Shown here piece by piece: positions 22,936 through 34,594 of a stretch of DNA of 34,594 nucleotides (position 1 is the stretch's first letter; each line of letters begins with the position of its first letter). Position numbers and translations under genes: made by a program. This DNA is from Chitinophaga pinensis (GTDB lineage Bacteria; Bacteroidota; Bacteroidia; Bacteroidales; Prolixibacteraceae): contig CAMDGL010000003.1 of NCBI GenBank assembly GCA_945897845.1, positions 1 to 34,594 of the forward strand. The letters are read 5' to 3'. The notes under the pieces are model-generated. The model was given only the letters and a program-made list of their open reading frames with translations. It did no database searches and was not told the DNA's origin.

Positions 22936-23871
22936 TTACCTTGGTCCTAAAAATCTATCACCATTGAAATGGATCATGTGTTCCGGAAATTCCATTATCC
23001 AGACTTCAGTATCCCATGCTATATTACTGGTATGCCGCTTAAATTCAGCAAAATCAGGAAAAGCCGACACATATATTTTACCGGCTTTACAATCAGCGAG
23101 AAGCTTTTCGAGTTCAAACAATCTTTTGGGCGACATGGGGCCATGCGAGGTTACGGCCTCAATCAAATAAAGCCAATTCTTTGATTCATCAAAAATTACC
23201 ACATCGGGCAACTTGCTATGTTCGTTAATCGGGATTCCTAAATTTTCCAATTTGTCCTTATTTAGAATAATATCTTTATTTTCCGTATCACCTAAATATA
23301 AAAGGACAGACCCTTGTGCAAAACGTGATGCAAACTCTTCAACAATTGCCGCAATAACTTCATTGTGTTTGCCCGGAGATAACAGAATTACTACTCCATC
23401 GGGTAAATGGAGCGGAACCCGAGCCATTCCCCTACCCTTACTATACTTATCATTTAGCTCACCAACTTGCTCTTTAAACGACCTGAGAGCCCGGCTCCAT
23501 TTCTTTGTTTTATAAGTTTTGATTGTTTCCAAAGCAATGGTAGATAAGGCATAATGGGCTCTTGGGCTGTTAACCGGCAAATCCGGAAGATCTGGATTAT
23601 AATCAGCTATTCCAGCTTGCACAAATTGGTGTAATACCTGCCTTCTTACAGTTTCTCTGGTATTCGGAGCATATTCTCGTTGGTAGTTTGTTGAAATAAA
23701 TGACATTATTCCTTTCGAAACGCCCAAGCTTTGTTGTTCTGCATTTGACCAATTATCACCTTCTTTGATGTTGCACAATGCCAGTAATGTATAAGCTGAA
23801 ATTTCATTTTGCTGTGCATTAGGCAACCCCAACTCGTGCAAAATCGCCTGAGCTTCCACTATTTTCGTCAT
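22936..23871 (-). CDS. Type II restriction endonuclease, BsuBI/PstI family (predicted CTGCAG)
   Basis: LPDVVIFDESKNWLYLIEAVTSHGPMSPKRLFELEKLL is the family-diagnostic block; overlaps and follows an N6-adenine methyltransferase. Confidence 0.85.
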   Translation of the reverse strand: MTKIVEAQAILHELGLPNAQQNEISAYTLLALCNIKEGDNWSNAEQQSLGVSKGIMSFISTNYQREYAPNTRETVRRQVLHQFVQAGIADYNPDLPDLPVNSPRAHYALSTIALETIKTYKTKKWSRALRSFKEQVGELNDKYSKGRGMARVPLHLPDGVVILLSPGKHNEVIAAIVEEFASRFAQGSVLLYLGDTENKDIILNKDKLENLGIPINEHSKLPDVVIFDESKNWLYLIEAVTSHGPMSPKRLFELEKLLADCKAGKIYVSAFPDFAEFKRHTSNIAWDTEVWIMEFPEHMIHFNGDRFLGPR

Positions 23872-25414
23872 ATTGATTTACTAATAAAGTTTCGTTTATG
23901 ATCTTGTCAATGTCATTTCTTCTCGGTGTCACCAATCGTTTAACTGCTTGTCCAATCGCAATTAGCTGATGGTATGGAGGCATTTTTATTTGTTTTAATT
24001 CTGAAGCGCCTACCTGAGTATTCCCGTTAAATGTTCTGAAGTAAGTATCAAAAAGGCTGCTATTAAACAGCGCTGAAATTCCCCAAACTTCATCGTCAGA
24101 AAGTTCTCCGTTGGGTCGATAAATGTAATTCAGATGATTTTCGATGCCTAACCATTCAGAACTTGCATTTGATGCAAAGTATGGTGCGCATACCAATCTG
24201 CTCTTATCGTCTTTTGAACTAAACCTCCGGATCAATATATAATTCCTATTTCTCAGTAACAATTTACGACTGGCCTCCGAATGAATGATATAACTCTGTT
24301 TTTCGCCCTTTTTTAATGGAAAAACAAACTCCATTTCCTTGATATTGTGCAACCAAAGCAATGGCACCAATGTAAACTCGTTGTTAAAATCAGAGATCAG
24401 AAATTCAAGGCTTCTGAACGCGACAACCGGGCCTGTCGAGATTTGAATATTGTAATCGTTCAACGAGTTTTTCCAATTCTTAAAAACATGAATTGTGTCT
24501 TTTTCAACAGAGTTGGATGGTATAAAAAGTATCTTTTCCCTTGAGTTTAAATCGATCAGCTCTTCCGTTTTAAAGACTGATACATTAGATGAATTCATAT
24601 CTTTTTCGCATTCAGAAACTGAAAGTTTAATCGTATTGCTTCGTTTCTTAGTGGCCCGGATTATAACATTTTCCTGAAGTACATTATCACCTTTAAACAT
24701 TTTATTTCTTGACTCAAAAATGTGAATATCGGCGATACTGACTTCTGCAAAAAAGAAATTTCGAAATGCTTTGAAATAATTACCGGCTGCAAAGCTTCTG
24801 GGAGTAATAATTATCAATTCACCCACAGGGTTAAGCAGACGAGCTGAAACGCCCATAAATAATGCATAAATATTCGGTTGACCGTAAACCAACTCATCTG
24901 CAATTTGGGCACGACTATCTGACTTAGATATTTTAAAATAGGGTGGATTTGAAATGACGTAATCATATTTGCTTACAGCATGGCTACCGAAAAGTGTATT
25001 AGGAGCAAAGACTGCCGAATTGGATAGAATAAAATCTTCTTGTATCAAAATAATATTTAACTCGATTTGCTTTTTGTGCAGCCAATTTTTCAGAAATGAA
25101 ATGACCTTGTGAAGCTCTTTGATCATATTAGAATCTGTCTCATACAGTTGTAAATCGATTTTGGTAATTCTACCTTTTTCAACCAGATTTTCGATCAGGC
25201 AACAACTTAAAATAGCCATCCCACAACCAGGATCGAGTATAGAAACGTGATCAGATTTGTGCTGGGCCAATTTACCCATGTAATCAGCAATCAACTTTGA
25301 AGTAAAAAACTGGCCACTCGATTTTTTGTGCAAATCTGTAGTCAAAACTGAATAGTTCAGTCCTACTTTTTCAGCATATTCCGACGGTAATATATTTATT
25401 TGATGTTCTCTCAT
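23819..25414 (-). CDS. N6-adenine DNA methyltransferase of the type II RM system
   Basis: KSSGQFFTSKLIADYMGKL, ILDPGCGMAILSCCL, YDYVISNPPYFKISKSDSR (NPPY). Confidence 0.88.
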   Translation of the reverse strand: MREHQINILPSEYAEKVGLNYSVLTTDLHKKSSGQFFTSKLIADYMGKLAQHKSDHVSILDPGCGMAILSCCLIENLVEKGRITKIDLQLYETDSNMIKELHKVISFLKNWLHKKQIELNIILIQEDFILSNSAVFAPNTLFGSHAVSKYDYVISNPPYFKISKSDSRAQIADELVYGQPNIYALFMGVSARLLNPVGELIIITPRSFAAGNYFKAFRNFFFAEVSIADIHIFESRNKMFKGDNVLQENVIIRATKKRSNTIKLSVSECEKDMNSSNVSVFKTEELIDLNSREKILFIPSNSVEKDTIHVFKNWKNSLNDYNIQISTGPVVAFRSLEFLISDFNNEFTLVPLLWLHNIKEMEFVFPLKKGEKQSYIIHSEASRKLLLRNRNYILIRRFSSKDDKSRLVCAPYFASNASSEWLGIENHLNYIYRPNGELSDDEVWGISALFNSSLFDTYFRTFNGNTQVGASELKQIKMPPYHQLIAIGQAVKRLVTPRRNDIDKIINETLLVNQYDENSGSSGDFARVGVA

Positions 25415-25719: not shown

Positions 25720-27972
25720 ATGAGTACTAATAAACTTTACCTGCCAATCACGCTGGCAATATTGATGATCGTGTCGGGCTGTCAGAAAAAAACAGAAAAC
25801 CTAATTCAATATGTCAATCCGTTAATCGGAACAGGGCCATCAACTGGCCCCGGTGGTTTAAAACACAATCAAGGTTCCGAATCATGGGGCCAGGATATAC
25901 CGGCGGTTGCAACTCCGTTTGGAATGACACAATGGACTCCTCAAACACGCGACAGTGAAAACAAATGCGTTTCACCTTATTATTTTGGCGCTGGAAATCT
26001 TCAGGGATTCAGGGGAACACACTGGTTAGGAGGTTCGTGCACCCAGGACTATGGTAGTTTTACCATTATGCCGATGACAGGTTATTTACGCACTTTTGCC
26101 GTCGATCGTGCTGCAAGTTACATGCACGATAACGAAACATCTACCCCGGCTTATTATTCGTGTTTACTTCAGAAATACCTCACTTTTGTTGAAATTACAA
26201 GTACTGCCCGTGCCGGATTTTTCAGGTTTTCATACGTGCAAAAAGATCAGGCCATCATTCTGATTACCCCAAACAGCGACGAAGGAAAGGGATATATAAA
26301 AGTTGATCCTGAAAAACAGGAAATTTACGGTTACAATCCTGTTCATCGGATCTATCAGGGTTGGGGAGAGCCGGCAGGTTTCAGCGGATATTTTGTAGTC
26401 AGGTTCAACAGGCCATTGGAAAATTACGGATGTTACTACCAGATGGAAGATTTAAAAAAACAAACAGAGATTTCAGGAAAACCTGATATTGGCGCTTATG
26501 CGCGTTTCAGCGTCACTGAAAAAGATGTGATACTCGCAAAAGTTGGTACTTCGTTTACCAGCCTCGAAGCGGCCCGTGCCAACCTTGACGCAGAAATACC
26601 GCATTGGGAGTTTGAAAAAACCAAAGCCGAAACCGAACAAATCTGGAATGAATCATTGTCGGCCATTAAACTGAAAGGTGGCAAGACCGAAGATTTAACC
26701 AAATTTTATACTGCGATGTATCATTCCATGCTTTACCCGCGCACATTCAGCAATGTGGATGGTACCTACCCCGAATTTGACGGGAATAAATCAATCAAAA
26801 AAGTTGAAGACGGACATGTTTATTACGACGATTTCTCATTGTGGGACACCTTCAGGGCTCAACTTCCACTGGTAAGCCTAATTGCTCCTGATAAATATGA
26901 AGACATGATGAAATCGCTCGTTCTGAAAGCAGAACAGGGAGGTTGGATGCCTATTTTCCCGATGTGGAACAGCTATACTTCAGCGATGATCGGCGACCAT
27001 GCCAACACCGCTTTGGGCGACGCTTACCTCAAAGGTTTCGATATCGATATTGACCGTGCCTGGCCGTACATGCGGAAAAATGCTTTTGAGATTCCGTCAT
27101 ACGAAGACTTTAACAACGGTAAGGGACGCAGAGCAATTATGTCGTATCTCGAAAATGGATATATTCCGCTTGAAGACAGTGTAAAAGAAGCTTTCCACAA
27201 AATGGAACAGACCTCGCGCACATTGGAATATGCCATGACCGACGATGTGCTTTCGAAAGTTGCATCGAAATACGGAAAAACAGAAGATGCCCAAATGCTG
27301 GCCAAACGCGGGCAGAATTACCAAAATGTTTTCGACGATGAAACCAAAAGCATGCGTGGCCGCCATCTCGATGGAACCTGGAGCAAAGATTATAATCCGC
27401 TTGCGCGTGCATCGTACCTCACCGAAGGGACTCCAATGCAACATTTGTGGTTTGTTCCGCAGGATATTCCGGGATTATTCGATCTGATTGGCGATCAAAA
27501 ACAAGTTCGTGAAAAGCTGGATGAACTCTTTGATACCGGCGAATACTGGCATTCGAACGAACCTTGCCACCACATCCCCTATTTGTACAATTATCTGGGC
27601 GATCCGGCTGAAACACAGCGAAAAGTAAAGAACATTCTGGCAACCGAATACACTGCTTATGATGGAGGAATCCCCGGGAACGACGACTCAGGCCAAACTT
27701 CGGCATGGTATGTATTTTCGGCCATGGGCTTTTATCCTGTTTCGCCCGGAAGTGGCGAATACCAGCTGTCCTCTCCTATTTTTACTGAAGTTGAATTAAA
27801 CCTGAACCCAAAATATTATCCGGGAAAGAAATTCAAAATCAGTCTCGACGATCCGGATACCTCAAAAACTTTCGACAAAGTGGAGTTGAATGGCAAGGAA
27901 AGTCAGTTTGTACTGAAACATGAAGACATACGAAAGGGCGGAAAATTGGAATTCTCAAATTCTGTAAAATAA
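25720..27972 (+). CDS. GH92 family alpha-mannosidase, lipoprotein
   Basis: Lipobox VSGC; YVNPLIGTG, AVATPFGMTQWTPQT, YHSMLYPRTFSNVDGTY, DDFSLWDTFRAQLPL, NEPCHHIPYLYNYLGDPAETQ, GIPGNDDSGQTSAWYVFSAMGFYPVSPGSGEY. Confidence 0.93.
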   Translation: MSTNKLYLPITLAILMIVSGCQKKTENLIQYVNPLIGTGPSTGPGGLKHNQGSESWGQDIPAVATPFGMTQWTPQTRDSENKCVSPYYFGAGNLQGFRGTHWLGGSCTQDYGSFTIMPMTGYLRTFAVDRAASYMHDNETSTPAYYSCLLQKYLTFVEITSTARAGFFRFSYVQKDQAIILITPNSDEGKGYIKVDPEKQEIYGYNPVHRIYQGWGEPAGFSGYFVVRFNRPLENYGCYYQMEDLKKQTEISGKPDIGAYARFSVTEKDVILAKVGTSFTSLEAARANLDAEIPHWEFEKTKAETEQIWNESLSAIKLKGGKTEDLTKFYTAMYHSMLYPRTFSNVDGTYPEFDGNKSIKKVEDGHVYYDDFSLWDTFRAQLPLVSLIAPDKYEDMMKSLVLKAEQGGWMPIFPMWNSYTSAMIGDHANTALGDAYLKGFDIDIDRAWPYMRKNAFEIPSYEDFNNGKGRRAIMSYLENGYIPLEDSVKEAFHKMEQTSRTLEYAMTDDVLSKVASKYGKTEDAQMLAKRGQNYQNVFDDETKSMRGRHLDGTWSKDYNPLARASYLTEGTPMQHLWFVPQDIPGLFDLIGDQKQVREKLDELFDTGEYWHSNEPCHHIPYLYNYLGDPAETQRKVKNILATEYTAYDGGIPGNDDSGQTSAWYVFSAMGFYPVSPGSGEYQLSSPIFTEVELNLNPKYYPGKKFKISLDDPDTSKTFDKVELNGKESQFVLKHEDIRKGGKLEFSNSVK

Positions 27973-27980
27973 CAATTGAG

Positions 27981-28715
27981 TTACACACCTGCCACCGAAC
28001 CGGTAAAATTCAAGGCACTTAATACCGCATTCTTGTAATTCCGTCCAATTGGTAGTTCTTTACCCTGAATTTCAATTGTATTGGCAGTAAATGCTTCTAT
28101 CTTGCTGACCGAAACAATGTATGATTTGTGAATCCGGAGAAAGTTTTCAGCGGGCAGTTTCTCTTCCATTAAAGTCATGCTGGTTTTGGTAATGATCTTA
28201 CGTTTATCGGTGTAAATCTGAACATATTCGCTTAATCCTTCAATGAACCTGATTTCGGAGAGATACAATTTTACAACCTTTTTATTTTCTTTCACATAAA
28301 TAAAACTTTCTTCCTGAACTTTTTCCGAAGTAGAATTGGAACCCACCTGAACTTCGTCCTGATTCATCTGATAAAACTTGTTTACAGACTTCAGGAAGCG
28401 CTCAAAAGTGATGGGTTTCAGTAAATAATCGACCACATCCAGTTCAAAACCTTCCAAGGCATATTCGCGGTAAGCCGTGGTAATAATCACTTTCGGCGGA
28501 TGTTTCAGTGTTTTAAGAAATTCGATGCCGGTAATCTGAGGCATTTGAATGTCCATAAATACCAGATCAACATGCTTTTCGCGTAATACGCCCAATGCTT
28601 TCATTGCATCGCTGCATTCAGCAACAATTTCAAAATTCTCCAGTTTTTCAACATGTCCACGTATGAGTTCACGTGCCAGCGGCTCATCGTCAACAATCAA
28701 ACATTTTGTCTTCAT
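27981..28715 (-). CDS. LytTR-family response regulator
   Basis: CLIVDDEPLARELI, LVFMDIQMPQITGIEFLK, LKPITFERF; LytTR domain IRFIEGLSEYVQIYTDKRKIITKTSMTLMEEKLP...FLRIHKSYIVSVSKIEAF. Confidence 0.94.
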   Translation of the reverse strand: MKTKCLIVDDEPLARELIRGHVEKLENFEIVAECSDAMKALGVLREKHVDLVFMDIQMPQITGIEFLKTLKHPPKVIITTAYREYALEGFELDVVDYLLKPITFERFLKSVNKFYQMNQDEVQVGSNSTSEKVQEESFIYVKENKKVVKLYLSEIRFIEGLSEYVQIYTDKRKIITKTSMTLMEEKLPAENFLRIHKSYIVSVSKIEAFTANTIEIQGKELPIGRNYKNAVLSALNFTGSVAGV

Positions 28716-28719
28716 AGTG

Positions 28720-30465
28720 TCACAATTTATTCGTTTCGGTTTTCTGCTTCAACTGATTGACAAAATACATCGAATTCAACGGTTCGCCTGTCGCCTTTTC
28801 GATCAGTTTTTCCCAGGGTAAAAGGTTACCGTAGCGGTAAAGATTATCTTTCAAATACTGTCCAACAGCTTTATTATTCGTATAAACACCACTCGTTTGC
28901 TTTATGACGCGGCTTTCGATGGAATGTTGCAGTTGAGCAGCAAAAACATCGGCAATTAAAACATTGTGGGTTGAACACGACAGGCTGGTTGCAAACTTAT
29001 TGGCCGCCCAAACACCGGAATTCCTTTCAGCTGGATAACTGATTCCCAAATATTTGAGGTTAAGTTTGTACCACAACGAATCCAGATCCTGATAAGGATT
29101 CCGGTAAATTTCCTGCTCAAAGTCTGACAGGGCAAGCAATTTACGGCATCTGAACAACTGATCGACTTGCTGCAAATGCTGACAAACCAACACAATCTCT
29201 TTCTGGTTTTCCTCATTAAGATTTAACTCATTTTTCAGCCAACTGTAATCCGATGCGAGGTTTTCGAAATATCTGGCGACCCCTTCATAAATAACCGGAA
29301 TCGGAGTTTTCAGCAAATACGGAATATCATCAGGAATAGAACTGTAATGAGATGCATGTCCGCCAAGGTGCATCATTCGGTACATTCCTTTGTGCGTATT
29401 CTGAATACCGGAAATCAGGCGAATGTCGTTTTTAAAATCCACATTGATCATGGCGTTTAAGGATGACTTTTCCGGACGGTATGCCAAATCGCTGTTATCA
29501 ATCACATCCTGGATGGGCAGGCCAATTCCTTCATAAAACTCAGCAGTTTTCTGAATCGGATCAATATCTGTAAAAAGCGAATCCATTTTTGCACTATATT
29601 TCTCAGGCAGATAACCGGTGCGCTCATTGTTGTAATGCCAGGGCTTTAATTCGGTCACCTGAATTTTGAAACGATCTGCCAGCAACTTATCAATTTCCCG
29701 TTTTGCCTCAAAGAACAGATCTCTGGTATTCATTTCAATTTCATCAATCATCCGTTTAATCTTTTGCGGAGTCTGATCTTTCGATTCTAGCGAGAGTGTG
29801 TAATAATCGGGATACCCAAAATTAGCGGCGAATTCATTTCGATCTTTAACCATCCTGATAATATCAGGGGCTAAAATCTTGCCTTTCTGCTGGTAAGCCT
29901 CAAAAATACGCTTCCGTACAGATTCATCATTGGTATGTTTCTGAATGGAATCAATTTTACCGGCACCATATTTTTTACCGTCAATTTCAATTTTCAGTAC
30001 TGAAAATACCTGCCACAATTTCAATTCATTTGATATGAGCTTCTGATATTTTTCGGGTTCTATCTGTGGCCCCATAAATGCCTGATAAAGAACATTCAAC
30101 TGGCGAATCAGCAAGGTGTCGGTAATCAATTCTGAATATTTTAATTTTCTGAGAAGCTGAAAATCCTCCTCGTTGGTAAATACATTTTGGGTGATTGACG
30201 AAAACCTGTCGGGATTAAAAAAATTGGAATCTTTTTGATTGGTTTTATTGAATTCGAGATCGATATCAATTAACTTTTGGTAATCTTTCTCGTTGCCCGA
30301 AACAGTGGCGTTCCACAATGCAACCGCACTTTCCATCGAATAATTCCTTATCAGGTCAACCTTCTGATCGATATAATGCTGCAGAATTTTTTCGGCCTGT
30401 TGTTTTTGATTCATGCAGGCAGAAAGCGCAAAAAACAATCCTATGGTAAAGAGAATCTTACGCAT
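28720..30465 (-). CDS. M2/M3-like metallopeptidase lipoprotein with degenerate active site (HLGGH)
   Basis: Lipobox LSAC; RMMHLGGHASHYSSIPDDIPYLLKTPIPVIYEGVARYFENLA aligns by eye with the LHELGHAxY...LPYLLRxP...TEAIAMLFG block of bacterial M2-type peptidases, but the Glu of HExxH is Leu. Confidence 0.75.
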   Translation of the reverse strand: MRKILFTIGLFFALSACMNQKQQAEKILQHYIDQKVDLIRNYSMESAVALWNATVSGNEKDYQKLIDIDLEFNKTNQKDSNFFNPDRFSSITQNVFTNEEDFQLLRKLKYSELITDTLLIRQLNVLYQAFMGPQIEPEKYQKLISNELKLWQVFSVLKIEIDGKKYGAGKIDSIQKHTNDESVRKRIFEAYQQKGKILAPDIIRMVKDRNEFAANFGYPDYYTLSLESKDQTPQKIKRMIDEIEMNTRDLFFEAKREIDKLLADRFKIQVTELKPWHYNNERTGYLPEKYSAKMDSLFTDIDPIQKTAEFYEGIGLPIQDVIDNSDLAYRPEKSSLNAMINVDFKNDIRLISGIQNTHKGMYRMMHLGGHASHYSSIPDDIPYLLKTPIPVIYEGVARYFENLASDYSWLKNELNLNEENQKEIVLVCQHLQQVDQLFRCRKLLALSDFEQEIYRNPYQDLDSLWYKLNLKYLGISYPAERNSGVWAANKFATSLSCSTHNVLIADVFAAQLQHSIESRVIKQTSGVYTNNKAVGQYLKDNLYRYGNLLPWEKLIEKATGEPLNSMYFVNQLKQKTETNKL

Positions 30466-31540
30466 TTATTTCAGGAGTTTGGGTACAGTTTTTCATGATT
30501 GCCAGACGAACGAAAAACACACAATTTTCTTTCCTGATCTCTAATTCATGATTTTTGGGATAGATCAGTTCAAGTCGCCTTTTGATGTTTGTAAGGCCAA
30601 CGCCTTCTTCAATTTCATTACCGAAACACTTTGATTTCGGAATGCTGTTGGAAGCCTCGAACTCAAAAATATTGCCGCGCACCCTGATCAGAAGTTTGAT
30701 CCAGGGAGATTCGGGATCGGGGCTGCTGCCGTGTTTAAAGCAATTTTCGATAAATGTATAGAGCAGCATCGGGGGAATCAGACAATCCGGATTATCAACA
30801 TCCTTTTCAAAAGTGAACGAAAGCCGGTCGGAATAACGCAATTCTTCGAGCTGAATGTAATCTTCAATAAGCTTAATCTCTTTCTTAACAGGCACTTCAA
30901 TGGCATTGCACTCGTATAAAATATAATGAAAAAGATCAGCCATTTTGGAAATGACAATCGGGGTTTTATCGCTTTTTTGGAGTGCCAGAACGTATAAATT
31001 ATTGAAGGTATTGAAAAGAAAATGAGGATTTAACTGCGCTTTCAGTACCTGCAATTCTGAAGCCAGATGTTTTCGTTCGGCTTCATTGGCAAGGTTTCTG
31101 AAATTCAACCAGTTTTTGTAATACTTAAACATTGCAAACAGAATAGCAGGACCCAAAATCCAGATCAGGTTCCGAAAAAATATATCTGCATTAAACCATT
31201 CTGTCGGATGTAAAACCTCCGGGATGAACAATGCATAATAAACATATCTGCCGGTTAAAATCCTTAAACAAGCTGCTGCGCATGCCGCAAAGGCAAGTGC
31301 CAGGAAAAACTGCCAGTACTTGCGGTTCAGGAGAAAAGCAGGAACCAGAAAATAAACTACACCATAAGTAAAAAACACAAATACCGGCAAATGAACCAGG
31401 AAATTCAGAAGGTAAAAAGAATATGGAAAATTTTGCTGGTAACTAAATATGAATGATCCGATCAGCACAAAGAATGTCCAAAACACAAGGTGAATCACCG
31501 GGCGTTTATTCAGGAATTGATAGATAGTTTTTAATGCCAT
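30458..31540 (-). CDS. LytS-type sensor histidine kinase (His_kinase/HATPase), canonical
   Basis: TM helices; LKAQLNPHFLFNTFNNLYVLAL; YTFIENCFKHGSS; EEGVGLTNIKRRLELIYP. Confidence 0.92.
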   Translation of the reverse strand: MALKTIYQFLNKRPVIHLVFWTFFVLIGSFIFSYQQNFPYSFYLLNFLVHLPVFVFFTYGVVYFLVPAFLLNRKYWQFFLALAFAACAAACLRILTGRYVYYALFIPEVLHPTEWFNADIFFRNLIWILGPAILFAMFKYYKNWLNFRNLANEAERKHLASELQVLKAQLNPHFLFNTFNNLYVLALQKSDKTPIVISKMADLFHYILYECNAIEVPVKKEIKLIEDYIQLEELRYSDRLSFTFEKDVDNPDCLIPPMLLYTFIENCFKHGSSPDPESPWIKLLIRVRGNIFEFEASNSIPKSKCFGNEIEEGVGLTNIKRRLELIYPKNHELEIRKENCVFFVRLAIMKNCTQTPEINA

Positions 31541-32583
31541 GGCTCGATATTGATTTCGATGGACACTTCCACAAAGTTAATTTCAAAATTCGACATGACC
31601 TTGTGATTTTCAGGATAAAAATAGTCAAGGTATTTTCGGCAGTTTTCAATAACCACGGTATTAAACTGTTTGCCAAGCAAACGATCGTTCCAAATTGTCA
31701 TCGAAAACAGAAGATGTTGAGGCTCTGTTCTAATAAGTACGGAATAATCTGTACTGTTTTCAGATTCATCCAGAATCATAAACCCTTCTTCGACCAATTG
31801 GAAGAAAAGAAACCGAGGAATCAGGATGCCATTCAATTCACCGGAAACATGAAAATTGACATCATAATCATCAGGTAAACTCATCAGTTGAATGTCGATG
31901 TAACCTTTGATTAAGTCAACTTCCTTCTGAAGTAAAATTCGATCCGATCGGTCATCTGAAATCATGCTGTTCATCAGATTCGATAAACGAATGATCATCT
32001 CCGGTGTTTGTGGTGAATGATTCTTTGCCAGATCCTCAAGTTTGTCTGCCACGTTCAGAAGAAATCGGGGATACGACTGGATTTTAAGGAGTTCAATCTC
32101 TGTTGACAATTTTCTGTTCAGTAAATCAGTCTTCTCGCCCATTTTCAAATTCCAAAAACGGACCACTTTTACCGACAGAAAAACTATGATAATATATTCG
32201 TTTCCCAAACCGTTGATCAGGATATTCTGCCAGCCAAAATAATTACCCGGTTGCTTATTCTCAGGTTTTACCAGCGCCCATACCACTTCGTTGCTGATAA
32301 GCATCTCAAGGATTGATGCAATAATAAGCAAAACAATGATCCACAGCGCAAATAATCCATAGCGAGGTCTGAAAAAATATGCCGGAACAAGCCAGTATGC
32401 AATAAGGTATGTGTGCGCCATGAATAAAGGAAGTGTTACCAGATAATAGACTAACCAGGCCATAAAATCATGCATTCCAAAGCCAAAACTTTGAATGAAA
32501 GTAAAACCAAAAATCCAGCACATCCAGAAAATGGTGTGTTGTGTCACCCGTTTTTTATCGATATGTATTGAAAATTCAGTCAT
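31531..32583 (-). CDS. Degenerate LytS-type pseudo-histidine kinase
   Basis: Same architecture as its neighbours, but LLKIQSYPRFLLNVADKLEDLA (PHFLFN to PRFLLN), N-box ENCFKH replaced by EEGFMI, no GxGL G-box. Confidence 0.85.
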   Translation of the reverse strand: MTEFSIHIDKKRVTQHTIFWMCWIFGFTFIQSFGFGMHDFMAWLVYYLVTLPLFMAHTYLIAYWLVPAYFFRPRYGLFALWIIVLLIIASILEMLISNEVVWALVKPENKQPGNYFGWQNILINGLGNEYIIIVFLSVKVVRFWNLKMGEKTDLLNRKLSTEIELLKIQSYPRFLLNVADKLEDLAKNHSPQTPEMIIRLSNLMNSMISDDRSDRILLQKEVDLIKGYIDIQLMSLPDDYDVNFHVSGELNGILIPRFLFFQLVEEGFMILDESENSTDYSVLIRTEPQHLLFSMTIWNDRLLGKQFNTVVIENCRKYLDYFYPENHKVMSNFEINFVEVSIEINIEPWH

Positions 32584-32589
32584 TTCAAT

Positions 32590-33645
32590 TTAGCTAAGTT
32601 CCAAATCAAGTTTAACTGTAAATTCCTGTTCTTTTGGCTGCACAACCAAACTGTATTTCTTTGGATAGATTAAATCCAGACGTTGCCTTAATCTTACAAG
32701 GCCCTGATTTTCTGACGCTTGAACCAATAGAATTTTCTTTGGCATACTGTTTTTTGTCTCAACGGAAAGTCTGTTTTTTTTACAATTCAAACTAAGTTCG
32801 ATCCACGGATTACCGGCGTCAGTGCTGCTTCCATGTTTAAAGCAATTCTCGATCAGGGAAAACAATACGAATGGGGCAATTACCTGTTGACTGATTTCAC
32901 CTTTTACATTGTTAATCAGATGTAGCCGTGAACCATAACGCAATAACTCTATCCGGATATAATCCTGAATCATGGCTATTTCGTTGTTCAGAAGAACTTT
33001 TTCTTGCTGGGCATCCACAATTGCAAAATGCAGCACTCGTTTAAGTCTGCAAATCAAATCCAATGTTTCATCAAAATTACGGAGCGACAATGCGTATAAA
33101 TTATTGAGCGTATTGAACAGAAAATGTGGTTCAAAATGATTTTGCAATAATTTCAGGTTCAGCCCGGCATATTTTTTTTGCAATATTTTGTGTTGCTTTT
33201 CGGCTATCAGCCAGTCTTTGCTAAATTTTGCAATCACAAACAATGCAACAATAAACGACATGTCTTTTGTATTGATCAGGATAAACCGGACACTGAGCAT
33301 TCCTTTGGAACCAATGAATTCAGGAGAAATGGCTGAATAAAAAATATAGTCCGAAACACTCAGCTTGATTGCCGACAGCACTAATCCAAGCGAAAGGAAG
33401 GAGACTGAGAACAATACATATTTTCTTCGAAGTACGAGGAATGGAATTAGAATGAAAATGGTGAGATATCCATATCCAAGAAAAATAAGCGCATTGATGA
33501 AAGTGAGGTTCAGTTGGTACAAAAAAGGCTGGTCGCTGTTCCTGCTGTAAAGAACAAGCGTGAAAACAAGCACCACAATGGTAAAAAAAACGATGTGTCT
33601 GCTTATCCTGAATTTCAGGGCATTATCAAACAAAAATTTATTCAT
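32590..33645 (-). CDS. LytS-type sensor histidine kinase
   Basis: LLQNHFEPHFLFNTLNNLYALSL; FSLIENCFKHGSS; SENQGLVRLRQRLDLIYPKKY (G-box partly degenerate). Confidence 0.9.
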   Translation of the reverse strand: MNKFLFDNALKFRISRHIVFFTIVVLVFTLVLYSRNSDQPFLYQLNLTFINALIFLGYGYLTIFILIPFLVLRRKYVLFSVSFLSLGLVLSAIKLSVSDYIFYSAISPEFIGSKGMLSVRFILINTKDMSFIVALFVIAKFSKDWLIAEKQHKILQKKYAGLNLKLLQNHFEPHFLFNTLNNLYALSLRNFDETLDLICRLKRVLHFAIVDAQQEKVLLNNEIAMIQDYIRIELLRYGSRLHLINNVKGEISQQVIAPFVLFSLIENCFKHGSSTDAGNPWIELSLNCKKNRLSVETKNSMPKKILLVQASENQGLVRLRQRLDLIYPKKYSLVVQPKEQEFTVKLDLELS

Positions 33646-33882
33646 TCTGTACCCGGATTAGCTTTCCCTGACCATTTTCCCCTGACGTTTAACTTCAAAT
33701 AAATGTAGCAAAATATACAATCGGCTAAGGCAACAAGCTGCAAACAACTCAAGGAGATCAGTTAATTGACTGATTGGACAATTAATAACCATTCGCCCGG
33801 CGCAATGCATCGTTGAGACGGAGTTTATTGTAATTCGCAGACAAAAAACTTGAAATCAAATAATTATAATCGTAACATAAAA

Positions 33883-33912
33883 AAGTTTCCTGACCATACG
33901 ATCAGGAAACTT
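33883..33912 (-). terminator. Intrinsic terminator downstream of the 33938-34429 gene
   Basis: AAGTTTCCTGA-ccatacga-TCAGGAAACTT perfect 11-bp stem, with an A tract on the + strand left side (T tract on the minus strand). Confidence 0.9.
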
Positions 33913-33937
33913 CAAACTTAAAGATTAAAATGTAATT

Positions 33938-34429
33938 TCAGATTTGTGCCCTGAATTGTTCTTTTATCAGCAATGGGAAATAACACGCAATTAAACCCAA
34001 TAATTCTTCCTCATTTTTTGGATTTTGAGAAATCACCCTTTGTGCATAATACTGCGAATTATCCAACATTGCATTAACAGTGGCAAGATCAACTTCACGA
34101 TATTCTTCATTCACCTTTTTTACACCAAATACATGCTTTTTACAAATGTATTCAATTTCAAAATCATCGGTCCTGACAATAAAATTCATACATTTCTTTG
34201 TCTTCTTTACCCCAATCAAAACAGGAGAATCCGACTCGGAATAAACCAATTGGTAAGTATTCAGAAGTTCATTGCCAATGGTGATGGCTTCGGGTGAAAG
34301 ACTGATGGTGTACTGACCTAATTCGGTCAATGACTGCCCGCTAACGACGGTTGTTCCTCTTTCTTTTGCGACGGTGAATAAAGTTACCAGCAGCAAACCA
34401 AATGTTAAAAATGCAAGTTTTGTTTTCAT
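33938..34429 (-). CDS. Hypothetical secreted protein
   Basis: Signal peptide MKTKLAFLTFGLLLVTLFTVAKE; own downstream terminator; no family recognised. Confidence 0.65.
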   Translation of the reverse strand: MKTKLAFLTFGLLLVTLFTVAKERGTTVVSGQSLTELGQYTISLSPEAITIGNELLNTYQLVYSESDSPVLIGVKKTKKCMNFIVRTDDFEIEYICKKHVFGVKKVNEEYREVDLATVNAMLDNSQYYAQRVISQNPKNEEELLGLIACYFPLLIKEQFRAQI

Positions 34430-34594
34430 GACTTTTTGTTTTTAAATAATTGTTCTTAATAGCTGAAGTAAATTTATTTCAATTATCAAGGCCCATTATT
34501 ACAAATCAATCAACGAACGTTTTTCAGGCTGAAAAACAAAAAATCAGGATACAAACGCCATTCGTTTACTACATTTTGCTGACAAATTGGATTT

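What the first reader, a model, noticed from the sequence alone, without database searches (positions are those of the whole stretch)
27981..33645. Five-gene LytS/LytTR operon: three tandem sensor kinases, a peptidase-like lipoprotein and one response regulator
Seen: minus-strand ORFs 32590-33645, 31531-32583, 30458-31540, 28720-30465 and 27981-28715 are separated by 4-6 bp or overlap by 8-10 bp, implying co-transcription and translational coupling. Known: LytS-type kinases usually pair one-to-one with a LytTR regulator. Here three paralogous kinases and a surface or periplasmic lipoprotein feed a single regulator, and two of the five proteins look catalytically dead. Inference: a multi-subunit sensor in which the dead kinase and dead peptidase-like lipoprotein are scaffolding or ligand-binding parts. 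This is my best candidate for an undescribed system.
Basis: partly seen in the sequence, partly recalled or inferred. Interest (0 to 1): 0.75.

Follow-up and report, generated by a model that had tools for sequence, protein, structure and literature searches.

The report
Two-module sensor operon with dead enzymes
In a family of environmental bacteria, one DNA-binding switch protein is wired to two separate membrane-sensor modules, one built around a broken signalling kinase and one around a broken relative of the human blood-pressure enzyme ACE, which gives testable natural cases of dead enzymes reused as sensors.

Summary
The five minus-strand genes are real, exactly where stated, and tightly packed. 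Comparison with relatives (Prolixibacteraceae, Bacteroidales) shows two modules sharing one response regulator rather than one five-part sensor.

Module A is an intact LytS kinase (K1) followed by a LytS pseudokinase (K2). It is older and was found in 42 of 140 genomes of the family, including a sister genus that lacks the lipoprotein. All K2 orthologues examined lack the phospho-histidine and ATP-site residues, but their membrane domain is as conserved as K1's.

Module B is an intact LytS kinase (K3) followed by the lipoprotein. It lies next to the regulator in 15 genomes, with or without module A. Two genomes carry leftovers of K2 where A was deleted. The lipoprotein is a divergent ACE-type (peptidase M2) protein. 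Free-standing relatives keep HExxH; the K3-linked clade has lost the catalytic Glu in 14 of 15 members, usually keeping the zinc ligands. Four deeper kinase-linked copies still look active.

Most likely mechanism: K2 is a sensing or activating partner of K1, and the lipoprotein is a periplasmic, probably peptide-binding, receptor for K3; both feed one LytTR regulator. Nearest described analogues: FasB-FasC-FasA and QseE-QseG-QseF. New variant of known kinds; partners, ligand and targets are inferred.

The parts
32590..33645 (-). K1: LytS-type histidine kinase, 351 aa, about 4 TM helices, intact H-box (PHFLFN) and N-box (ENCFKH)
   Evidence: PF06580 62.8 bits; motifs intact in all orthologues except L171 (H to D); monophyletic K1 clade 100/99
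31531..32583 (-). K2: LytS-type pseudokinase, 350 aa; H-box His, N-box Asn and G-box absent; membrane domain conserved
   Evidence: PF06580 44.4 bits; all 18 orthologues examined lack the motifs; 42/140 family genomes; 31 invariant residues in the TM part vs 10 in the rest
30458..31540 (-). K3: LytS-type histidine kinase, 360 aa, intact; first extracytoplasmic loop (FSYQQNFPY) unusually conserved
   Evidence: PF06580 80.6 bits; motifs; loop 1 identity 0.74 vs 0.58 for the whole TM region, against 0.28 in K1
28720..30465 (-). LIPO: lipoprotein (lipobox LSAC17), ACE-like (peptidase M2) fold, HLGGH at 366-370 in place of HExxH, E394 kept
   Evidence: AlphaFold2 pLDDT 83.9, pTM 0.86; Foldseek best matches ACE/ACE2, TM about 0.75; relatives match PF01401; motif survey and tree
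27981..28715 (-). RR: LytTR response regulator, phospho-acceptor D55, K100
   Evidence: PF00072 and PF04397; D55/K100; 80-98% identical in the other loci with K3-LIPO of the window's type, about 63-75% in loci without LIPO
33646..33937 (-). Intergenic region upstream of K1, presumed site of the operon promoter
   Evidence: no gene here; downstream genes are nearly gapless; promoter not tested
33938..34429 (-). ORF163: small secreted protein of unknown fold, usual upstream neighbour of this locus; possible RR target, not part of the sensor
   Evidence: 119/140 family genomes carry homologues; syntenic; no fold match; upstream direct repeats tentative

Best explanation
The locus is two sensory modules in one operon that share a single LytTR response regulator. 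Module A is K1 plus K2: K1 is the working LytS kinase; K2 is a conserved pseudokinase whose membrane domain is kept while its phospho-site and ATP site are gone. K2 most likely heterodimerises with K1 and supplies a sensing or activating membrane domain (shown: sequence loss, conservation, constant pairing; inferred: heterodimer and direction of effect). Module B is K3 plus the lipoprotein: the lipoprotein is a catalytically disabled ACE-type (M2) peptidase, held in the periplasm by its lipid anchor. It most likely binds a ligand, probably a peptide, in the old substrate cleft and docks on the short conserved extracytoplasmic loop of K3 to switch it (shown: fold, active-site change, fixed gene pairing, loop conservation; inferred: ligand, docking, sign of effect). 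Either active kinase phosphorylates D55 of the regulator, so its output integrates two inputs.
For: Modules separate in nature: K1-K2-RR with no LIPO across a sister genus; K3-LIPO-RR with no K1-K2 in seven genomes, and K2 leftovers immediately upstream of K3 in G316 and G307. Full sets also exist (window, G303, G306, G299, G301 on two contigs; with an extra kinase in G302 and G423; G304 shows K2-K3-LIPO-RR before its contig ends). K2 is dead in every orthologue but constrained: motifs, dN/dS 0.175, TM identity 0.53 equal to K1 while the H-box domain falls to 0.40 from 0.59. LIPO: ACE fold; 15-member clade (support 99) with Glu lost in 14, both zinc histidines kept in 13. The kinase tree joins K3 with the kinases beside the deeper LIPO copies (98/90), so kinase and lipoprotein were inherited as a pair. 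K3 loop 1 is its most conserved membrane segment. Precedents: FasB-FasC-FasA (PMC12675982), QseE-QseG-QseF (PMC6075780, PMC12691602).
Against: No interaction, phosphorylation, ligand or expression data. K3 lacks the folded periplasmic domain that QseG binds in QseE. One member of the lipoprotein clade (G309) has HEGGH and four deeper kinase-linked copies have intact HExGH, so enzyme activity may matter in some. G310 and G423 have also lost zinc ligands, so a zinc-bound ligand cannot be general. K2 could act as a homodimeric sink or RR-sequestering protein rather than a K1 partner. The K3 loop comparison uses partly different species sets for K1 and K3. In the LIPO tree the two kinase-linked clades join with support of only 55.
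Confidence: 0.55

Rival explanations
1. One integrated five-protein sensor: the three kinases and the lipoprotein form a single complex that signals to the regulator.
For: Five genes tightly packed in the window and in G303; the same full order (one copy split over two contigs) in G306, G299 and G301.
Against: The two pairs occur without each other in many genomes, K2 leftovers show that A can be lost while B persists, and K1-K2 are present in a sister genus where LIPO was not found.
Confidence: 0.12
2. The lipoprotein is still a functional processing component: an active or residually active peptidase that destroys or matures a peptide signal for K3.
For: G309 keeps HEGGH with E394; the deeper kinase-linked copies (G326, G410, G413, G415) keep HExGH.
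Against: Catalytic Glu is Leu in 14 of 15 members including the window; two members lack the zinc histidines as well.
Confidence: 0.15
3. K2 is a negative regulator (kinase sink or inhibitor of K1, as RetS is of GacS) rather than an activating sensor subunit.
For: Pseudokinase paralogue beside an active kinase; RetS-GacS heterodimer inhibition is cited in PMC12675982.
Against: Sign of effect is not readable from sequence; the conserved TM domain fits either sign.
Confidence: 0.3
4. K2 and LIPO are passengers in decay: dead copies awaiting deletion.
For: K2 leftovers in G316 and G307 and a collapsed locus in G311 show that deletions occur.
Against: Purifying selection similar to that on K1; K2 loss of motifs is ancient and shared by all orthologues with full-length frames; TM residues invariant across genera.
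Confidence: 0.04

Closest known systems
FasB-FasC-FasA of group A Streptococcus (PMC12675982)
   Same: Two membrane sensor kinases encoded beside one response regulator; FasC is proposed to be a pseudokinase that senses, and FasB-FasC form heterodimers by two-hybrid assay.
   Different: FasC keeps its phospho-histidine H246, whereas K2 has lost both the histidine and the ATP site; Fas proteins are predicted to have six TM helices, these about four; no evidence here of heterodimers; far apart taxonomically.
QseE-QseG-QseF (GlrK-QseG-GlrR) of Enterobacteriaceae (PMC6075780, PMC12691602)
   Same: Gene order kinase, lipoprotein, regulator; in QseEGF the lipoprotein faces the periplasm from the outer membrane and activates the kinase directly.
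   Different: QseG is not described as peptidase-related in the papers read; QseE has a 140-residue periplasmic domain, K3 only short loops; QseF acts on sigma-54 promoters, the regulator here is LytTR.
Peptidase M2 (ACE) family, PF01401
   Same: Predicted fold matches ACE/ACE2 (TM about 0.75); free-standing relatives score up to 120 bits over full length.
   Different: Window protein does not itself reach PF01401, lacks the catalytic Glu, is a lipoprotein tied to a kinase.
LytS/LytTR two-component systems such as BtsS/BtsR (PMC10653868)
   Same: PF06580 kinase with LytTR regulator; multi-helix membrane input domain.
   Different: No 5TMR-LYT or GAF domain found; one to four kinases and a lipoprotein per regulator instead of one kinase.
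Pseudo-histidine kinases DivL and evolved ChrS (PMC9491836)
   Same: Histidine-kinase-derived proteins that modulate a partner kinase without catalysis.
   Different: Different kinase families; K2 is a naturally conserved LytS-type case.

Membership tests
LytS/LytTR two-component system | PF06580 kinase domain with phospho-His H-box and N-box | tested here: met
   K1 and K3 intact; K2 fails this and is a pseudokinase
LytS/LytTR two-component system | Receiver domain with phospho-Asp plus LytTR DNA-binding domain | tested here: met
   PF00072, PF04397; D55, K100
LytS/LytTR two-component system | 5TMR-LYT input domain (described as characteristic in PMC10653868) | tested here: not met
   no such Pfam hit in K1, K2 or K3 at E 0.01; about 4 hydrophobic segments. 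They belong to the broader PF06580 family, not to the 5TMR-LYT type
Peptidase family M2 (ACE) | M2/ACE fold | tested here: met
   model pTM 0.86, Foldseek ACE/ACE2 E about 1e-15 to 1e-13, TM mostly 0.65-0.77
Peptidase family M2 (ACE) | Score above PF01401 gathering threshold | tested here: inconclusive
   window protein none; clade members L075 40.8 and L076 32.9 bits, free-standing relatives 78-120 bits, cut-off 23
Peptidase family M2 (ACE) | HExxH...E zinc and catalytic motif | tested here: not met
   HLGGH, E394 kept: filed as a non-catalytic homologue, not as an M2 peptidase
FasBCA-type kinase/pseudokinase three-component system | Kinase and pseudokinase paralogues encoded with one regulator | tested here: met
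   K1-K2-RR in the loci; K2 in 42/140 genomes
FasBCA-type kinase/pseudokinase three-component system | Phospho-His retained in the pseudokinase | tested here: not met
   His replaced in all K2 orthologues examined
FasBCA-type kinase/pseudokinase three-component system | Heterodimer of the two kinases | not testable with these tools
   needs two-hybrid or crosslinking
QseEGF-type kinase-lipoprotein-regulator system | Gene order kinase, lipoprotein, regulator | tested here: met
   15 loci K3-LIPO-RR, plus G326
QseEGF-type kinase-lipoprotein-regulator system | Kinase with large periplasmic domain bound by the lipoprotein | tested here: not met
   K3 has only loops of about 17-23 residues
QseEGF-type kinase-lipoprotein-regulator system | Lipoprotein activates kinase | not testable with these tools
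   needs biochemistry

The most novel reading that the evidence does not exclude
A signalling operon in which an ACE-type peptidase has been turned, after recruitment beside a LytS kinase, into a catalytically dead peptide receptor, and which also carries an ancient fully dead LytS pseudokinase as the sensing half of a kinase heterodimer, both inputs meeting on one LytTR regulator. The lineage preserves the intermediate steps (active-looking kinase-linked copies, Glu loss, later zinc-ligand loss).
Probability: 0.35. Interest if true: 0.75.

Novelty: new variant of a known kind. Interest (0 to 1): 0.55.

Why it matters
Histidine kinases are usually thought of as homodimers, each paired with one regulator. 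Here a family of bacteria offers about 40 genomes with a naturally conserved kinase/pseudokinase pair and about 20 with a peptidase-derived lipoprotein tied to a kinase, and the two modules combine or separate on one regulator. It makes two general questions testable: how a pseudokinase contributes to a two-component system, and how an enzyme becomes a receptor. The graded loss of the catalytic site within one clade gives ready-made natural variants to compare. I found no description of an M2-type protein in a two-component system in the papers searched, though that library is incomplete.

Tried and rejected
Target of the regulator: a search for tied direct repeats upstream of ORF163 gave a clear best period of 21 bp (287 vs 218-239 for other periods and about 180 for shuffles), as expected for LytTR, but training on one genus group and testing on the other worked only for a few loci, and the window's own copy is weak; kept as tentative. 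ORF163 as a cassette-specific ligand or effector: rejected as specific, because 119 of 140 family genomes carry homologues with or without the cassette; its model (pLDDT 72) has no PDB match. GH92 as the regulated target: rejected as general, because the gene at the 3' side differs between genomes (Na+/H+ exchanger, SusD, fumarase, Tex). M32 carboxypeptidase as the identity of the lipoprotein: only a C-terminal match; full-length fold and relatives say M2. Kinase-lipoprotein pair outside the family: no co-directional pair in 87 loci across order and phylum (some genomes counted twice); the single adjacency (L221) is a convergent, unrelated LytS/LytTR operon.
Full report
WHAT IS THERE. The five minus-strand ORFs exist as described, with gaps of 4-6 bp or overlaps of 8-10 bp. 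I call them K1 (32590-33645), K2 (31531-32583), K3 (30458-31540), LIPO (28720-30465) and RR (27981-28715). Pfam gives PF06580 for all three kinases, receiver plus LytTR for RR, and only a C-terminal M32 peptidase match for LIPO. The genome is a draft in 536 contigs, 76.6% complete with 0.97% contamination; its nearest named relatives are metagenome-assembled Prolixibacteraceae. It holds nine PF06580 kinases.

THE LOCUS IS A MOSAIC OF TWO MODULES. I searched 140 genomes of the same family for LIPO, RR, K2 and the neighbour ORF163 and read the surroundings. In a sister genus (g3) and others with no LIPO, the locus reads ORF163, (K0), K1, K2, RR, where K0 is a further intact kinase present in some. 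In the window's genus and two others it reads ORF163, (K0, K1, K2), K3, LIPO, RR. K3 and LIPO always come together, in that order, directly before RR. K1 and K2 come together, and are missing in G316, G307, G309, G305, G310, G322 and G324. In G316 and G307 the C-terminal end of K2 (residues from about 305 on, 50-53% identical) still lies just upstream of K3, broken. G311 has only fragments of K1 and LIPO running into RR. Three genomes have ORF163 and RR with no kinase between them (L156, L157, L161). So the simplest history is an older K1-K2-RR operon, insertion or acquisition of K3-LIPO between K2 and RR, and later losses. The regulator is the constant part: 80-98% identical in the loci with LIPO of the window's type, about 63-75% in loci without.

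K2 IS A CONSERVED PSEUDOKINASE. Every K2 orthologue examined (18 besides the window) lacks the phospho-accepting histidine (R, K, I, L or E instead), the N-box asparagine and the glycine box; K1 and K3 keep them, with one K1 exception in a distant genome, L171. K2 was found in 42 of 140 family genomes in six genera. It forms one clade (99/94) in the kinase tree. Among the same genomes, the membrane domain of K2 is as conserved as that of K1 (mean identity 0.53 in both), but the H-box domain is less conserved (0.40 against 0.59); 31 of 41 invariant K2 residues lie in the membrane part. Between the window and G303, dN/dS is 0.175 for K2 and 0.152 for K1. A protein that keeps its membrane domain and loses catalysis under selection is best read as a sensing or allosteric subunit. 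That it pairs with K1 is inferred from their constant adjacency (overlapping genes in most of the sister-genus loci) and from precedents: FasB-FasC of group A Streptococcus form heterodimers and FasC is proposed to be a pseudokinase (PMC12675982); DivL and evolved ChrS act without catalysis (PMC9491836).

LIPO IS AN ACE-TYPE PROTEIN WHOSE ACTIVE SITE WAS LOST. A model from the window protein and 13 relatives has pLDDT 83.9 and pTM 0.86; its best PDB matches are ACE and ACE2, TM about 0.75. Free-standing relatives at about 30% identity match the M2 (ACE) model PF01401, mostly over full length, and carry HExGH...E in all but three cases. The tree of 82 sequences puts the 15 K3-linked copies of the window's type in one clade (support 99). 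In it the catalytic Glu is replaced by Leu in 14 of 15; both zinc histidines are kept in 13 and E394 in 14; G310 and G423 have lost more. G309 has HEGGH (codon GAG), either retained or regained. Four deeper copies (G326, G410, G413, G415) also lie directly behind a kinase but have intact HExGH; they form a second clade, compatible with one origin (joint support only 55). The kinase tree joins K3 with those kinases (98/90), so kinase and lipoprotein travelled as a pair, and active-site loss most simply came after recruitment. In 87 loci with free-standing relatives from order and phylum no kinase lies in the same direction beside LIPO; the one adjacency, L221, is convergent.

HOW MODULE B LIKELY WORKS. 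K3 has about four membrane helices and no folded extracytoplasmic domain. Its first loop (FSYQQNFPY; extracytoplasmic by the positive-inside rule, inference) is the most conserved part of its membrane region (identity 0.74 against 0.58 overall), whereas the same loop is the least conserved in K1 (0.28), below average in K2 (0.47) and about average in K0 (0.59), none of which has a lipoprotein encoded beside it. The species sets differ in part, so this is supportive only. The lipobox is clear; no acidic surface-export signal follows the cysteine, which (general knowledge of Bacteroidota lipoproteins) favours the periplasmic face. M2 peptidases hold oligopeptides in a deep cleft (general knowledge), so a disabled M2 protein is a natural peptide receptor. 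The nearest mechanistic precedent is QseE-QseG-QseF, same gene order, where the outer-membrane lipoprotein binds and activates the kinase from the periplasm (PMC6075780, PMC12691602). It works like QseEGF at best; it is not a member, since K3 lacks the periplasmic domain and LIPO is a different kind of protein.

WHAT IS REGULATED is open. ORF163, a small secreted protein of unknown fold, is the most constant neighbour, but is family-wide. A 21-bp-period direct repeat upstream of it suggests LytTR sites but did not transfer well between genera.

VERDICT. Observation confirmed; interpretation partly supported. The finding is a new variant of known kinds: a naturally conserved LytS kinase/pseudokinase pair and a kinase tied to a disabled ACE-type lipoprotein, sharing one LytTR regulator.

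Noticed in passing
22936-25414: BsuBI/PstI-type restriction endonuclease (22936-23871) overlapping an Eco57I/N6-type methyltransferase (23819-25414): a restriction-modification pair beside the finding.
   Followed up: partly
25720-27972: GH92 alpha-mannosidase family gene convergent with the operon; GH92 genes also lie near this locus in several relatives (L066, L079, L085, L156, L157, L160), others have a Na+/H+ exchanger or SusD there.
   Followed up: partly
L085:9579-10683: Genome G311: fragments of K1 (residues 4-28) and LIPO (13-126) run into RR lacking its first 34 residues, in a 323-aa open frame; a collapsed locus or an assembly artefact.
   Followed up: partly
L075:8729-10462: The G309 lipoprotein has HEGGH (codon GAG) inside a clade that has Leu: retained or regained catalytic Glu.
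   Followed up: partly
L026, L030, L093: Three free-standing M2-type relatives in two other families of the order have YE[CS]GF and Asp in place of HExGH and Glu: an independent loss of the zinc site.
   Followed up: no
L156, L157, L161: RR and ORF163 kept side by side with no kinase between them: an orphan regulator with 63-72% identity to the window's RR.
   Followed up: no
L168, L169: In genus g201 the RR homologue (53-56% identity) lies next to two long ORFs of SusC/SusD size and not beside the kinase-lipoprotein pair.
   Followed up: no
34430-34594: Phylogenetic footprint upstream of ORF163 (TGGCGTT(T/G)GTAT ... CGTT(T/C)GTTGATT in relatives) that may be a regulator site.
   Followed up: partly
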